Shown here piece after piece: positions 9,413 to 58,889 of a stretch of DNA of 64,000 nucleotides (position 1 is the stretch's first letter; every line of letters starts with the position of its first letter). The notes beneath the pieces were generated by a model, which was given only the letters and a program-made list of their open reading frames with translations, did no database searches and was not told the origin of the DNA. The DNA comes from Planctomycetaceae bacterium (GTDB lineage Bacteria; Planctomycetota; Planctomycetia; Planctomycetales; Planctomycetaceae): positions 1 to 64,000 of the forward strand of contig JAKFVC010000001.1 of the NCBI GenBank assembly GCA_021732415.1, given 5' to 3'. The position numbers and the translations under genes are program-made.

Positions 9413-9604
9413 CGTGGGACGGGTCTCCAGGCCCGTCCGTCATCCGAAACGAGAACCGACAATCGATAAAACCCAAGGATTTTCGCGAACCGGAAAACTT
9501 CGCCAACGGAAAGAGAAGGGCTTTCGATTCGAGCTCTCAAAAGCTGCAAAGTATGTTGAAAACTCAACTTACAGGGACGGACGGGCCAGGAGACCCGTCC
9601 CACG
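9413..9604. repeat. inverted pair of family B elements
   Basis: 9413-9441 reads GTGGGACGGGTCTCCAGG and onwards; 9573-9604 is its reverse complement with two small changes. They enclose 131 bp. Each element also contains its own short hairpin (GACGGG...CCCGTC). The pair fills much of the gap between accA and the WD40 gene. Confidence 0.85.
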
Positions 9605-23424: not shown

Positions 23425-25635
23425 ATGACCATCACCCGTTACATTCTTTTGACTGCGATCACATTTGCTCCACTAACCGCGTGGGCACAAGTCTTTACGT
23501 CGTCCCCGCCCGGAATGATTGACGGCCCGGGAAACCGCTTCCCAGCGAGATCGTACTCGGGGGAATTCGCCGATCCGGGATTTTCGGATCGCTCAGGCTT
23601 CAACGCTCAGACGGATGCCGAAGTCCTGCAGATGCAAGGAGTGGCCCCCGGACCCCAGTCAGAACTTATTTCCCAGCAACCACTTCCGCCAGGACTGCCA
23701 TCCAGGGCTGCGCGACATTACAACACGTCCCCGGTTTGGCAAACATCAGCTAAGGGGGGCTATTTTGGAATTATGGGAGCGATTGCTCAGCCTGGGGTCT
23801 ATTACTCGGCCGAGCGACGCATCACATTGGGCGAGCTCGCCAAATTGGCAGGGGGAACAGCTCCCGCGGCCAGTGGTGGCGTCCGAATTGTGCGGCAAGG
23901 TCGTGGCGGCCTGCAAGCATTTCTGACCCCCGATTCCAAGTATGAGGTCATGAGTGGGGATGTGGTCCTGCTGGAATCTCAGCGGGCACAGGGTAAGACG
24001 GGGGTGCGCGACTATCGAACCCAACCTTCAAACGGGGACGCTGCAGCGGCTTCGAGCCCGGCTGCCCCCGCCGCTAAAGGACCGCAACTGGCCTACCTGG
24101 CGTTTGTGAATCTCTCGCCGCAGCCAATCGTCGTTCCCGTACCAGGCGATCAAGCCACATTGGCCGCAGTCATGAAATGGCTGCATCAAGATGAGAATTC
24201 TCCGCCGTTTGTGCGAGTCATCTCCCCGAGTCCTGTTCTGAGGCAGAATTCCGGCCTGCCCCCCGATCAACAGGTGCTCGAAAACGGTTCTGTCCTGGTG
24301 TTTGATCCCTCAACGATCAAGGCCGAGCGATTGCCGCCGTTTCCCCCCGTGATTGGACAAGTCCCAGCAGCGGAAACTGCACCAGTGGTCGTTCGGCCGG
24401 GGGCAGCCGCCCCACCGGCAGTCAAGAGCGAGGCGGTTCAGACTCCCGCACCGGCGAATCGCCAACAACATCCTGCCCCCACAGTGAAGCCACTGCGTGC
24501 CCCCACGCCTCCTACCTCGCAACGAGATCCCCGTGCGGGTGAGGTTCAACATTTCGAACAGACACGGTCGGCAGGCGTGCCGAGCGATACGATCAACGAA
24601 GCCCACCACCAGGGTGGCACTCAATCCGGTGGCCCCCTCTTGATGATGCCGCAAACGAATCGTCCCCCACGTTCGCAAGCGACGATTCCGGATTCCAAAT
24701 CGCGACCGGTGTTACCGCCAAAACGCCTGCAATCTCAGCGGGCTGACGAAGCAACCCCGGCCAAATACGTAGGCCAAACGATGTCCTGGCAGTCGCGTCC
24801 GCCGGTTCACGCGAATGCAGGTGAGCCCGAGGTCGAAGAGGACCAGGGTGTCGTCCAGGCACATGTCGAAGAAGATCGCCCTGACGACGAGTTCGCCGGG
24901 CCAGCCTTGGAACTTCCCAACCCCGTCCCGAACCTGGTCGAGCCCGAGCCCATCGTAGCCTCGCAGCCGGCAGCCGAACCGACGGTCGCCCCAGCACCCA
25001 AGTTTGTCCCATCAACCTTCAGCATGCAAATCGTCTGGTTCAGTGTGGGATCCATGGTCCTGCTGATGGCCGTGTTGTGGTTTGTGGCACGCTGGGATGG
25101 ACCACGTCCCGTCCGAGCCGCCCTCACTGCCGGCCATACGAGCCGCTTCCGAACATCTGCCCCATCAAGTCCTGCAACGGCGACTCCCCAACCTGCCCTT
25201 CGAATCCTCAAGCCCATCCAGAAGACAGTGGCGGAGGCCCCGTTGCCGATGCCCCCGATCGCTCCACCAGTCGTCCCGGAACCCGCACGGGCCAGACCTT
25301 CAGCACCGGCGACCACCCCTGGACCGACGCGAACGATCTCGCTGGAAGAACAACGCCTGCGAGCTCATTTCCGCGAAGCACGCCAGGCACGCGTCACGGC
25401 GACTCCGGAGCCCGCCGAGTCCCCTGCCCCGCCCGTTCCCTTCGTGGCGCCGCCAAGTTCTGCGGTCACTCGCGAAGAGTTACGCCATTTGACCGGGCGT
25501 GCGGCCGGTTCGAACGAAAAGATCCTGGCCCAGGTTCCCACCGTGAAAAAGCCGAATCCCTCCCCCGAACGGGCTCCTTCCACCGCCTCGGGGAACTTGC
25601 TGGACCGCGTCCTGCGTGCACAGCAGAAACGATAA
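23425..25635 (+). CDS. secreted SLBB-like protein with internal membrane anchor
   Basis: A 736-residue protein. The ATG at 23425 has AGGAGG 9 bases upstream and starts a signal peptide ending near AWA. Residues ~112-180 resemble an SLBB domain (GAIAQPGVYYSAERRITLGELAKLAGG...), found in polysaccharide-export and competence proteins. A long Pro/Ala-rich disordered part follows, then one membrane segment at about 533-555 (IVWFSVGSMVLLMAVLWFVA), and a Pro/Arg-rich C-terminus. No polysaccharide-export motif is visible before the SLBB part, and no Wza/Wzc genes are near. Its topology suggests an envelope-spanning adaptor. I do not recognise a named family. Confidence 0.65.
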   Translation: MTITRYILLTAITFAPLTAWAQVFTSSPPGMIDGPGNRFPARSYSGEFADPGFSDRSGFNAQTDAEVLQMQGVAPGPQSELISQQPLPPGLPSRAARHYNTSPVWQTSAKGGYFGIMGAIAQPGVYYSAERRITLGELAKLAGGTAPAASGGVRIVRQGRGGLQAFLTPDSKYEVMSGDVVLLESQRAQGKTGVRDYRTQPSNGDAAAASSPAAPAAKGPQLAYLAFVNLSPQPIVVPVPGDQATLAAVMKWLHQDENSPPFVRVISPSPVLRQNSGLPPDQQVLENGSVLVFDPSTIKAERLPPFPPVIGQVPAAETAPVVVRPGAAAPPAVKSEAVQTPAPANRQQHPAPTVKPLRAPTPPTSQRDPRAGEVQHFEQTRSAGVPSDTINEAHHQGGTQSGGPLLMMPQTNRPPRSQATIPDSKSRPVLPPKRLQSQRADEATPAKYVGQTMSWQSRPPVHANAGEPEVEEDQGVVQAHVEEDRPDDEFAGPALELPNPVPNLVEPEPIVASQPAAEPTVAPAPKFVPSTFSMQIVWFSVGSMVLLMAVLWFVARWDGPRPVRAALTAGHTSRFRTSAPSSPATATPQPALRILKPIQKTVAEAPLPMPPIAPPVVPEPARARPSAPATTPGPTRTISLEEQRLRAHFREARQARVTATPEPAESPAPPVPFVAPPSSAVTREELRHLTGRAAGSNEKILAQVPTVKKPNPSPERAPSTASGNLLDRVLRAQQKR

Positions 25636-25651
25636 GCTTTGGAAAACCGGA

Positions 25652-25682
25652 GACACGGACGCTAGCAGCGTCCGCCACGGGG
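25652..25682. repeat. GGACGCTAGCAGCGTCC palindrome, inverse copy
   Basis: 31 bases that match 8162-8192 exactly in the opposite orientation. The element starts 17 bases after the stop of the SLBB-like gene and could act as its terminator. Confidence 0.75.
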
Positions 25683-26060
25683 GCTGAATCTCATCTCTGC
25701 CCAATATTTCAGTCGCGACACGCTCCCGCCGCCGACAGCGTTAAACTCTGCCAAGATTGCAGGAATTTGTTACAACGCGTGCAAGTAATCTGCCAGGCGT
25801 CTTCGGCAGGCTGACAGTACCGCACCTCCCCAATCTCTGCGAGCTTGCCTGGTCTGATGGGAAGGACCCGTCTGTTCCGATTGACCGCATTTCCATTTCA
25901 CCACGCAGCTTGCCCGGTCCGTCCCTCTCGACGACCGATCCACCGCATTGCGTCCACGATTTGACGTCAGACGACATCATTCGGACGACATTCCGGACGC
26001 AACGATTCGCGCGGTCATCGGCATTTTCTGCCATTTGACGGTCTGTTTCGGATCTTCAAC
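25683..26060. other. intergenic region, no supported gene
   Basis: Open frames exist on both strands, but none has a recognisable product or a good ribosome-binding site. It precedes the sigma-54-type promoter and could hold upstream activator sites. An activator-like palindrome is not obvious by eye. Confidence 0.4.
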
Positions 26061-26062
26061 TT

Positions 26063-26079
26063 TTGGCACGACTCCTGCA
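26063..26079 (+). promoter_or_regulatory. sigma-54 (RpoN) type -24/-12 promoter
   Basis: TTGGCACGACTCCTGCA matches the RpoN consensus TGGCACG-N4-TTGC with one mismatch. The invariant GG is at 26065-26066 and GC at 26077-26078, exactly 10 bases apart. The predicted start of transcription is near 26090. The only gene downstream on this strand is the mini-lipoprotein at 26143. Confidence 0.75.
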
Positions 26080-26142
26080 AATTAGGTTTGATCGTTGCCG
26101 CAGGAACGGCAGCAGGAACTCAAGCCCCAGGAAAGGAGCATC

Positions 26143-26274
26143 ATGTTCAACCGTATCGCATGGACGCTGTTGCTGCTCACCGTGTTCGTCGCCGGCTGCG
26201 TGTCAGTTGGCAGAACCGATGGCATCTACAGCCCCGGCTATCACATCGGGGGACTCTCGATGACGGGACATTAA
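26143..26274 (+). CDS. 43-residue lipoprotein under a sigma-54-type promoter
   Basis: A very small gene that length cut-offs will miss. The ATG at 26143 is preceded by AGGAAAGGAG with ideal spacing. The product has a signal peptide (MFNRIAWTLLLLTVF) and a perfect lipobox VAGC with Cys at residue 19, leaving a mature peptide of about 25 residues rich in Gly, Ser and Tyr. It resembles short entericidin-like lipoproteins in layout but not clearly in sequence. Promoter, leader and hairpins downstream make a self-contained unit. The function is unknown; regulation by sigma-54 suggests production on a specific signal. Confidence 0.8.
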   Translation: MFNRIAWTLLLLTVFVAGCVSVGRTDGIYSPGYHIGGLSMTGH

Positions 26275-26401
26275 TTCCGTTTGCCACATCCGTTTGCCTG
26301 TGGGCCACGCGGGCCTTTTTTGTACCCAGCCGGAGCGCTGTTGTCGGGCATACGCCAACAGCCTCAGAGAACTCCGATCAAATAGATTCGAATGCCGGGC
26401 C

Positions 26402-26431
26402 CGAGCCTGATCTGCACGCAGATCAGGCTCG
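26402..26431 (+). terminator. strong hairpin downstream of the mini-lipoprotein
   Basis: CGAGCCTGATCTG and CAGATCAGGCTCG form a perfect 13 bp stem with a 4-base CACG loop, followed by GTTGTGTTTC. A weaker GGCC...GGCC hairpin with six T lies earlier, at about 26303-26322. Either could end the lipoprotein transcript. Confidence 0.6.
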
Positions 26432-26445
26432 TTGTGTTTCCGTAT

Positions 26446-26674
26446 CGTGGGACGGGTCTCCAGGCCCGTCCGTCTCCGTAGCTTGACTCTCCAGAGTCGA
26501 GCGAATTCCGAGCGACGCGAGCAGCGATGAAGACGCTCCTGCGGTCGACGTGACGAATTTGTCGGTCGTTGTTTTGCGCGGGTAACTCAACTCTGGACAG
26601 TCAAGCTACAGGGACGGACGGGCCTGGAGACCCGTCCCACGATTGCATTCGCCCGACTCTGGAGAGTCAGGCTA
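26446..26674. repeat. inverted family B pair with nested GTAGC elements
   Basis: Family B elements at 26446-26474 and 26611-26641 are inverted. Just inside them, 26477 onwards reads GTAGCTTGACTCTCCAGAG, and its partner before 26611 reads CTCTGGACAGTCAAGCTAC. A further GCCCGACTC...GGCTAC half element follows at 26650-26674. Confidence 0.75.
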
Positions 26675-26681
26675 CAGTGCT

Positions 26682-27608
26682 CTACTTCTTCAATTCCTTG
26701 AACACAAACTCGATGTTCTCCACATTCTCCTTGGCTGGCACCCCGGTCCATTCCGTGTAGAACGGCAAATCAATCTCCTTCTTGATGACATCGAGCCCCA
26801 TCCCCTTGTCGATCGCCGCCTGAATGTATTGCCGCAATTCGACAAAATACCGCCGCTGAGTCGCCAGCAACGATTTGTCGGTCGATTCCCCATGCCCGGG
26901 GCAGATCAACTTGATCGGCAGCTTCTCGAGTTCCGTCAGCACGGCAATCCAACTCGCCGTGTTGCTGTCGCCGGTGTAGTTGAATTGACCGTTCACGCAC
27001 GCGTCGCCGGTAAAGAGAATCCCGTGCTTCGGCAACCAGGCGACCGCGTCACCGGCCGTATGAGCATGTCCGACGTGCAACAACTCGACACGCTGTGTCC
27101 CGTCATCGATCACCAGCTTCTTCGGGAAATAGAGCGCCGGTTTGCCATACTCGAGCTTTCCGTGACCGAACTCATCAGGGTTCGTCTTCTTGGTGTTTTC
27201 AAACCCCTTGATGCCATTCGTGTCGAACAACGCCAGGCTGTTCTCGCTCGCGATGGCTGTCGCCCCGATCTTCTGATACACGATGTTGCCATCGGCGTGA
27301 TCGCCGTGATAGTGCGTGTCGAAGACATAGCGAATCGGTTTATCGGTGGTCTTGCGGACTTCCTTGATGACCTCTTCCGCCTGCTTGGGGAAGTTGGCCT
27401 CAATGACCAGGACGAAATCCTTGAAGACGACCCAGCCGTTGTTGCAGCCGATGAACTTCGGCTTGGTCAGCGTCTTGCGAAAGAAGACACCGGGAGCGAC
27501 TTCCGTGATGACCGTTTCTTCCGGTTTGAACCAGCCGGAAGTCCAGCCGCTCAAGCCCAGCAAAATACAAAAAGTGAGTGCTGCAATCACGGGACGACGA
27601 CGAGCCAT
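26682..27608 (-). CDS. exported metallo-beta-lactamase-fold hydrolase
   Basis: A 308-residue protein with an N-terminal signal or membrane segment (RRRPVIAALTFCILLGLSG). The zinc motifs are complete: THYHGDHADGN near residue 99, GHAHTAGD near residue 180, FTGDA near residue 200 and CPGHG near residue 237. It resembles the QuiP/PqqB-neighbour type of periplasmic MBL hydrolases rather than a true beta-lactamase. Substrate unknown. It starts at ATG 27608 with AAGGA about 11 bases before it. It stands alone between repeats. Confidence 0.8.
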   Translation of the reverse strand: MARRRPVIAALTFCILLGLSGWTSGWFKPEETVITEVAPGVFFRKTLTKPKFIGCNNGWVVFKDFVLVIEANFPKQAEEVIKEVRKTTDKPIRYVFDTHYHGDHADGNIVYQKIGATAIASENSLALFDTNGIKGFENTKKTNPDEFGHGKLEYGKPALYFPKKLVIDDGTQRVELLHVGHAHTAGDAVAWLPKHGILFTGDACVNGQFNYTGDSNTASWIAVLTELEKLPIKLICPGHGESTDKSLLATQRRYFVELRQYIQAAIDKGMGLDVIKKEIDLPFYTEWTGVPAKENVENIEFVFKELKK

Positions 27609-43566: not shown

Positions 43567-43890
43567 CAGGATGGGTCTCCAGGCCCGTCAGTCAGCCTCT
43601 TCCAGCCTCATAAACGTGATCGCGAATGTACCGTCAACAGTATTACCACAGTCCCCTTCGTGTCCTTCGTGACCTTCTGTTCAAAATAGAGATCCATGGG
43701 GGAGTGTCTATTTTTAACCACGAATTTTACGAATGACACGAATATCGAAGAGGGATCGGAGTTCGTTCGGATGCAATTTCCTGAATTTCGATTCGTGTCA
43801 TCTGTGTGATTCGTGGTTCAAAACCTTCCTCACTCAATTGGTGGCCTTATTGATGAAACTGGACTGACGGGCCTGGAGACCCGTCCCACG
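43567..43890. repeat. inverted family B pair enclosing CACGAAT hairpin
   Basis: Family B elements at 43567-43593 and 43863-43890 face each other. Inside them, 43716-43743 and 43791-43818 pair (ACCACGAATTTTACGAATG...) and belong to the family at 40134. This is again one family nested in another. Confidence 0.75.
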
Positions 43891-54109: not shown

Positions 54110-54138
54110 GACGGACGGGCCTGGAGACCCGTCCCACG
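54110..54138. repeat. single family B element
   Basis: GACGGACGGGCCTGGAGACC and onwards, between the hydrolase and epimerase genes. No inverted partner is nearby. Confidence 0.75.
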
Positions 54139-58749: not shown

Positions 58750-58889
58750 CGTGGGACGGGTCTCCAGGCCCGTCCGTCCCGCCGGTGGCCGGAAATCACA
58801 AATATCAGAGGTCCGCAACTACCCCAGGAGAAAGCCCACTTTTCCTCGGATAACCGACTGGACGGACGGGCCGGGAGACCCGTCCCACG
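58750..58889. repeat. inverted family B pair
   Basis: The elements at 58750-58778 and 58861-58889 are reverse complements with one mismatch. They sit between the two co-directional HTTM-locus genes. Confidence 0.85.

What the first reader, a model, noticed from the sequence alone, without database searches (positions are those of the whole stretch)
26063..26274. Sigma-54-type promoter driving a 43-residue lipoprotein
TTGGCACGACTCCTGCA has the exact GG-N10-GC spacing of an RpoN promoter. It is followed by a leader, AGGAAAGGAG, and a mini-gene with a perfect VAGC lipobox. Such a small gene escapes gene callers. A tightly switched tiny lipoprotein in a planctomycete is unusual and could be a stress, surface or toxin-like factor.
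Basis: partly seen in the sequence, partly recalled or inferred. Interest (0 to 1): 0.72.

Follow-up and report, generated by a model that had tools for sequence, protein, structure and literature searches.

The report
Sigma-54-controlled tiny lipoprotein gene
A planctomycete genome carries a real, evolutionarily conserved 43-residue lipoprotein gene behind a conserved sigma-54 (on-demand) promoter, one of several exported-protein genes placed behind such promoters in this genome; what the little protein does is unknown.

Summary
TTGGCACGACTCCTGCA (26063-26079) has exact GG-N10-GC spacing, and ATG 26143-26274 encodes MFNRIAWTLLLLTVFVAGCVSVGRTDGIYSPGYHIGGLSMTGH with SD AGGAAAGGAG and a VAGC lipobox. 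The motif alone proves little: the genome has 71 TGGCACN6TGCW sites against 64 for the reversed pattern. Comparison decides. Three other genomes of the genus have the gene (93, 93, 66% identity). Where flanks are kept, 13 synonymous versus 3 non-synonymous changes show selection on the protein. In the most diverged genome the cassette sits among other genes and surrounding DNA is 43% identical, yet promoter core (14/14), SD/start region (18/18) and a 16-nt dyad-bearing element centred near -64 (16/16) are identical, while all four spacer bases differ. rpoN and about 27 strong activator domains are present. Genome-wide, exported-protein-like frames follow such sites 11:1 over the opposite direction. 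Best reading: monocistronic, activator-dependent sigma-54 gene for a small envelope lipoprotein, genus-restricted, function unknown. "Toxin-like" has no support; the activator is unidentified. New member of a known kind. In passing: a covarying, sigma-54-preceded small-RNA family across Planctomycetaceae, without an Rfam match, deserves its own study.

The parts
26017..26032 (+). ATCGGCATTTTCTGCC, conserved upstream element with imperfect dyad CGGCA-N5-TGCC(G/A), centred near -64; candidate activator binding site (UAS)
   Evidence: 16/16 identical in the most diverged relative G001, where the DNA just upstream is 43% identical; no second copy next to a TTGGCACG in any of 170 family genomes. 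The role as activator site is inferred.
26033..26062 (+). spacer between the upstream element and the -24 box
   Evidence: 24/29 aligned columns identical to G001
26063..26079 (+). sigma-54 promoter TTGGCACG-ACTC-CTGCA (-24 GG 26065-26066, -12 GC 26077-26078)
   Evidence: exact GG-N10-GC; in an 18-base block from 26062, 14/14 core bases kept in G001 while all 4 spacer bases changed; 18/18 in G002 and G003
26090..26142 (+). predicted 5' leader (start about 26090), with possible 5' stem-loop at about 26094-26113 and SD AGGAAAGGAG 26129-26138
   Evidence: 12 bases downstream of the -12 C; CCCCAGGAAAGGAGCATC is identical in all four genomes, 18/18. Stem-loop appears in the centroid fold only; the whole transcript is not more stable than shuffles (z 0.33).
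26143..26274 (+). 43-aa lipoprotein: signal peptide 1-18, lipobox V16-A17-G18-C19, predicted mature 25-residue lipopeptide CVSVGRTDGIYSPGYHIGGLSMTGH
   Evidence: homologues in G002 and G003 (93%) and G001 (66%); 13 synonymous: 3 non-synonymous against G003; invariant GRTDGI.SPGY.IGG
26296..26321 (+). intrinsic-terminator-like hairpin plus T-run closing the monocistronic unit
   Evidence: stem 26296-26314, tail CTTTTTTGTA
26402..26431 (.). 13-bp perfect hairpin between the convergent lipoprotein and MBL genes, probable bidirectional terminator
   Evidence: also present in G002 and G003

Best explanation
This is a monocistronic gene for a small lipoprotein, transcribed by sigma-54 RNA polymerase when an enhancer-binding AAA+ activator is switched on. 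The activator probably binds the conserved 16-base element centred near -64 and remodels the holoenzyme at the -24/-12 site, giving a transcript of about 230 bases from about 26090 to the terminator near 26320. The product is exported, lipidated on Cys19 and cut to a 25-residue peptide anchored in the envelope, where its GRTDGI(Y/F)SPGY(H/R)IGG tail acts as an accessory surface or periplasm-facing factor under a specific condition. Shown here by sequence comparison: gene, frame, SD, promoter core, upstream element, terminator-like sequence. Inferred: dependence on sigma-54, activator binding, lipidation, envelope role. Not known: which activator, which signal, which partner.
For: Exact -24/-12 site and ORF. 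Homologues in 3 congeneric genomes with synonymous-biased change: 13:3 and 11:3 against G000, 5:0 between G002 and G003; third-position bias P about 0.0008 for G000 versus G003. In G001, with about 43% identity upstream of the element and 44% after the stop, the upstream element is 16/16, promoter core 14/14, spacer 0/4 and SD/start region 18/18. The cassette lies among different genes in G001, while G001's copies of MBL, MFS and endonuclease IV are elsewhere, so conservation is not passive synteny. One rpoN and 30 activator-domain matches, about 27 of them strong. No sigma-70-type promoter was found in 25600-26700. Signal-peptide-like frames follow TGGCACN6TGCW sites 11 times in the sense and once in the opposite direction (P about 0.003).
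Against: No transcript or peptide data. The motif alone is at chance frequency. Only four genomes have the gene and three of them are close, so conservation of the control region rests largely on one informative comparison (G001). The upstream element is near for an activator site (usually -80 to -150, own knowledge) and could be another protein's site. The signal-peptide test used an ad hoc hydrophobicity rule.
Confidence: 0.75

Rival explanations
1. The small frame is real but transcribed by another sigma factor or from an undetected promoter; the -24/-12 match is a chance site or an overlapping, repressive sigma-54 site.
For: The motif by itself is not enriched in the genome (71 against 64 reversed); sigma-54 can also repress at overlapping promoters in E. 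coli (PMC4551910).
Against: Core bases 14/14 kept with 0/4 spacer bases kept in a diverged homologue at another locus; no sigma-70-type match nearby.
Confidence: 0.12
2. The conserved unit is mainly a sigma-54-dependent small regulatory RNA, and the 43-codon frame is incidental or secondary.
For: Short monocistronic unit with terminator; the genome does have apparent sigma-54-preceded small RNAs elsewhere.
Against: Changes fall on synonymous third positions, a perfect SD is conserved, predicted RNA structure is no more stable than shuffles (z 0.33), and the 5' leader is 74 nt longer in G001.
Confidence: 0.05
3. A hydrophobic toxin-like peptide (type I toxin or bacteriocin-like) under tight control.
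For: Size and one hydrophobic segment.
Against: Conserved lipobox and a polar, glycine-rich conserved tail rather than a bare transmembrane helix; no immunity gene or second gene in the unit; no Pfam, NCBIfam or convincing PHROG match. An antitoxin RNA was not specifically searched for.
Confidence: 0.04

Closest known systems
Sigma-54 regulon of Chlamydia trachomatis (CtcC-activated; same superphylum by own knowledge; PMC7482065)
   Same: sigma-54 promoters in front of envelope and exported protein genes; a putative lipoprotein is among the affected genes
   Different: different genes; one activator there against about 27-30 activator-domain matches here; no sequence relation tested
PEP-CTERM genes under PrsK/PrsR (PMC1569441)
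   Same: single-gene units for exported proteins with an upstream activator motif plus sigma-54 -24/-12, mean 71 nt from the second motif to the start codon (here 63 nt)
   Different: no PEP-CTERM tail; the product is a 43-aa lipoprotein
Entericidins and other tiny bacterial lipoproteins (own knowledge)
   Same: about 40-50 residues, signal peptide plus lipobox, short mature peptide
   Different: no match to any Pfam family
Predicted sigma-54 promoters in planctomycetes (Pirellula sp. strain 1, cited in PMC12316311)
   Same: sigma-54 promoters are expected and used for varied genes in this phylum
   Different: this lipoprotein family was not met in the papers searched here

Membership tests
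sigma-54 (RpoN) dependent promoter | -24 GG and -12 GC with 10 bases between, TGGCACG-N4-TTGCW-like | tested here: met
   TGGCACG-ACTC-CTGCA, one mismatch to TTGCW; spacing exact
sigma-54 (RpoN) dependent promoter | rpoN and enhancer-binding activators in the genome | tested here: met
   one rpoN, 30 PF00158 matches
sigma-54 (RpoN) dependent promoter | motif under selection | tested here: met
   14/14 core and 0/4 spacer bases kept in G001
sigma-54 (RpoN) dependent promoter | upstream activator site | tested here: inconclusive
   a conserved 16-nt element exists; the binding protein is unknown
sigma-54 (RpoN) dependent promoter | transcription depends on RpoN and an activator | not testable with these tools
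   needs a mutant and RNA data
bacterial lipoprotein | n-region charge, h-region, lipobox [LVI][ASTVI][GAS]C | tested here: met
   MFNR-IAWTLLLLTVFV-AGC (lipobox VAGC); in G001 LSGC
bacterial lipoprotein | lipid attached at Cys | not testable with these tools
   needs labelling or mass spectrometry
entericidin (PF08085) | match to the family profile | tested here: not met
   no Pfam family at E <= 1
PEP-CTERM / Prs system | PEP-CTERM sorting tail | tested here: not met
   C-terminus GGLSMTGH has no PEP-TM-basic tail (by eye)

The most novel reading that the evidence does not exclude
The 16-base element, the sigma-54 promoter and the lipoprotein form a self-contained regulatory cassette that has moved as a unit between genomic sites within one planctomycete genus and has its own dedicated activator (in G001 an NtrC-type activator gene lies about 3 kb away), reporting or answering a genus-specific envelope signal.
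Probability: 0.12. Interest if true: 0.5.

Novelty: new member of a known kind. Interest (0 to 1): 0.36.

Why it matters
It gives a compact, testable sigma-54 target in a phylum where sigma-54 regulation is hardly studied by experiment, and points to a wider pattern: sigma-54 sites in this genome are found in front of exported-protein genes. The gene itself is an orphan limited to one genus, so its general importance is modest.

Tried and rejected
Homologues outside the genus: none convincing in 170 family genomes (weak E 6e-4 to 6e-3 hits lie in long unrelated frames) or in 392 genomes drawn from the phylum, and only the same three records in genome contigs. Pfam and NCBIfam found nothing; PHROGs weak matches only. 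A regulon defined by the upstream element: near-copies in G001 and G003 have no sigma-54 site next to them, and the pair element-plus-TTGGCACG is unique to this gene in the family. The activator near the G001 copy: its orthologue (C57 in G000) is present in all four genomes, with LexA nearby, and is not linked to the lipoprotein in G000, so the link may be chance, about 3%. RNA structure in the transcript: not better than shuffles. A start at TTG 26095 (59 aa): rejected, since the SD and ATG at 26143 are what is conserved. Structure prediction of a 25-residue mature peptide was judged uninformative and not run.

Full report
Observation. The sequence at 26063-26079 is TTGGCACGACTCCTGCA, GG (26065-26066) and GC (26077-26078) separated by exactly ten bases. 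It is followed 63 bases after the element by an ATG (26143) with AGGAAAGGAG in front, opening a 43-codon frame with a VAGC lipobox. As a motif it is not remarkable: relaxed matches in the window equal expectation (32 against 31.7), and in the whole 9.87-Mb genome TGGCACN6TGCW occurs 71 times against 64 for the reversed pattern. The case must therefore rest on comparison.

Conservation of the protein. A search of relatives found the gene in three other genomes of the genus (93, 93 and 66% identity) and nowhere else with conviction. In genome contigs the records are a MAG called Planctomicrobium piriforme and two Planctomycetaceae MAGs. Substitutions between G000 and G003 are 13 synonymous and 3 non-synonymous, with 12 of 16 at third positions (P about 0.0008); between G002 and G003 all five are synonymous. 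The diverged G001 protein is MFFRRLGWTLLIFGSLTLVSGLSGCVSPGRTDGIFSPGYRIGGAPIHNP: the signal peptide and extreme C-terminus vary, while the lipobox Cys and GRTDGI.SPGY.IGG stay. The frame is coding and under purifying selection.

Conservation of the control region. G002 and G003 keep the neighbours (SLBB-like protein, MBL-fold hydrolase, MFS transporter); G001 does not: there the cassette lies between a DUF2007-like gene and an alpha/beta hydrolase (names given by eye), and the MBL-MFS-endonuclease IV block is elsewhere in G001. Against G001, DNA upstream of the control region is 60/138 identical and DNA after the stop 54/124, but ATCGGCATTTTCTGCC is 16/16, the stretch to the promoter 24/29, the promoter core 14/14, the four-base spacer 0/4, and the SD/start region 18/18. 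A core kept with the spacer replaced is the pattern expected of a used sigma-54 promoter. The 16-base element holds an imperfect CGGCA-N5-TGCCG dyad centred near -64, a candidate activator site; no other gene in 170 family genomes has it next to TTGGCACG.

Machinery and context. The genome has one rpoN and 30 activator-domain matches, about 27 of them strong, none in the window's contig. A terminator-like hairpin ends the unit at 26296-26321, a second, perfect one separates it from the convergent MBL gene, and no sigma-70-type promoter was found. To ask what such sites serve, I read about 300 bases either side of all 71 sites: an SD-led, signal-peptide-like frame starts 30-200 bases downstream in 11 cases in the sense direction and in 1 case in the opposite direction (binomial P about 0.003). 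The set includes glycine/tyrosine-rich exported proteins, a pilin-like DUF1559-type protein and a PRC-barrel-like protein (identified by eye). This agrees with published links of sigma-54 to the cell envelope (PMC4551910), to membrane and exported proteins in Chlamydia (PMC7482065), and with the enrichment of COG2165 in Planctomycetia (PMC12316311).

Mechanism. Most likely an activator bound at the -64 element opens sigma-54 polymerase at -24/-12, producing a transcript of about 230 bases for a 25-residue mature lipopeptide. The parts and their conservation are shown; activator binding, RpoN dependence, lipidation and function are inferred. The NtrC-type activator lying about 3 kb from the G001 copy is a weak lead (chance about 3% by my estimate), as its orthologue in G000 is not linked to the lipoprotein.

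Comparison with the known. It works like other single-gene sigma-54 units for exported proteins, such as PEP-CTERM genes under PrsR (PMC1569441), but lacks the PEP-CTERM tail. It resembles entericidin-sized lipoproteins in build but matches no Pfam or NCBIfam family. I file it as a new, genus-restricted member of a known kind: a sigma-54-dependent small lipoprotein gene.

In passing, a separate and probably more interesting thing turned up outside the window: a family of about 100-nt units with the invariant loop word GGCGTTGGCCCGCACT in 34 of 170 Planctomycetaceae genomes (one hit for the reversed pattern), of which 29 of 33 copies read have a sigma-54 -24/-12 element 23-31 bases upstream (by a relaxed pattern) and most have a terminator hairpin; 22 of 29 predicted pairs show at least one double compensatory change. 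Rfam gave no credible match for the two G000 loci tested.

Noticed in passing
outside the window: G000:C129:17417-18440 (L084, three tandem copies), G000:C233 (L096), and L136-L165 in other Planctomycetaceae: A family of about 100-nt sigma-54-preceded units, apparently small RNAs: invariant loop word GGCGTTGGCCCGCACT closed by a covarying stem, then a covarying terminator hairpin. Word in 34 of 170 family genomes (20 of 58 genera among the good-quality ones), reversed control 1; 29 of 33 copies have a -24/-12 element 23-31 nt upstream; 22 of 29 pairs with compensatory double changes; no credible Rfam match for L084 and L096. Tandem copies recall Vibrio Qrr RNAs in arrangement only.
   Followed up: partly
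L052, L070, L076, L077, L083, L089, L095, L097, L101 (G000): Sigma-54-like sites followed by exported-protein-like genes (Gly/Tyr-rich, pilin-like DUF1559-type, PRC-barrel-like), 11 sense against 1 antisense when the window gene and one doubtful frame are included.
   Followed up: partly
26444-26675, and copies at 9414-9603, 43865-43889, 54113-54137, 58751-58888: Dispersed palindromic element with 58-nt inverted arms (GTGGGACGGGTCTCCAGGCCCGTCC...), eight matches in the window where none is expected; it is not in the aligned G002 and G003 sequence at this site, so it looks like a MITE- or REP-like insertion behind the lipoprotein gene.
   Followed up: partly
23425-25635: 736-aa secreted protein with a weak SLBB-like match, evolving fast (57-75% identity to relatives whose neighbouring MBL and MFS genes are 86-97% identical).
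   Followed up: no
26682-27608: MBL-fold hydrolase related to the SoxH/PQQ-relay type (TIGR04559 below cut-off), found in 54 of 170 family genomes, most of which lack the lipoprotein.
   Followed up: no
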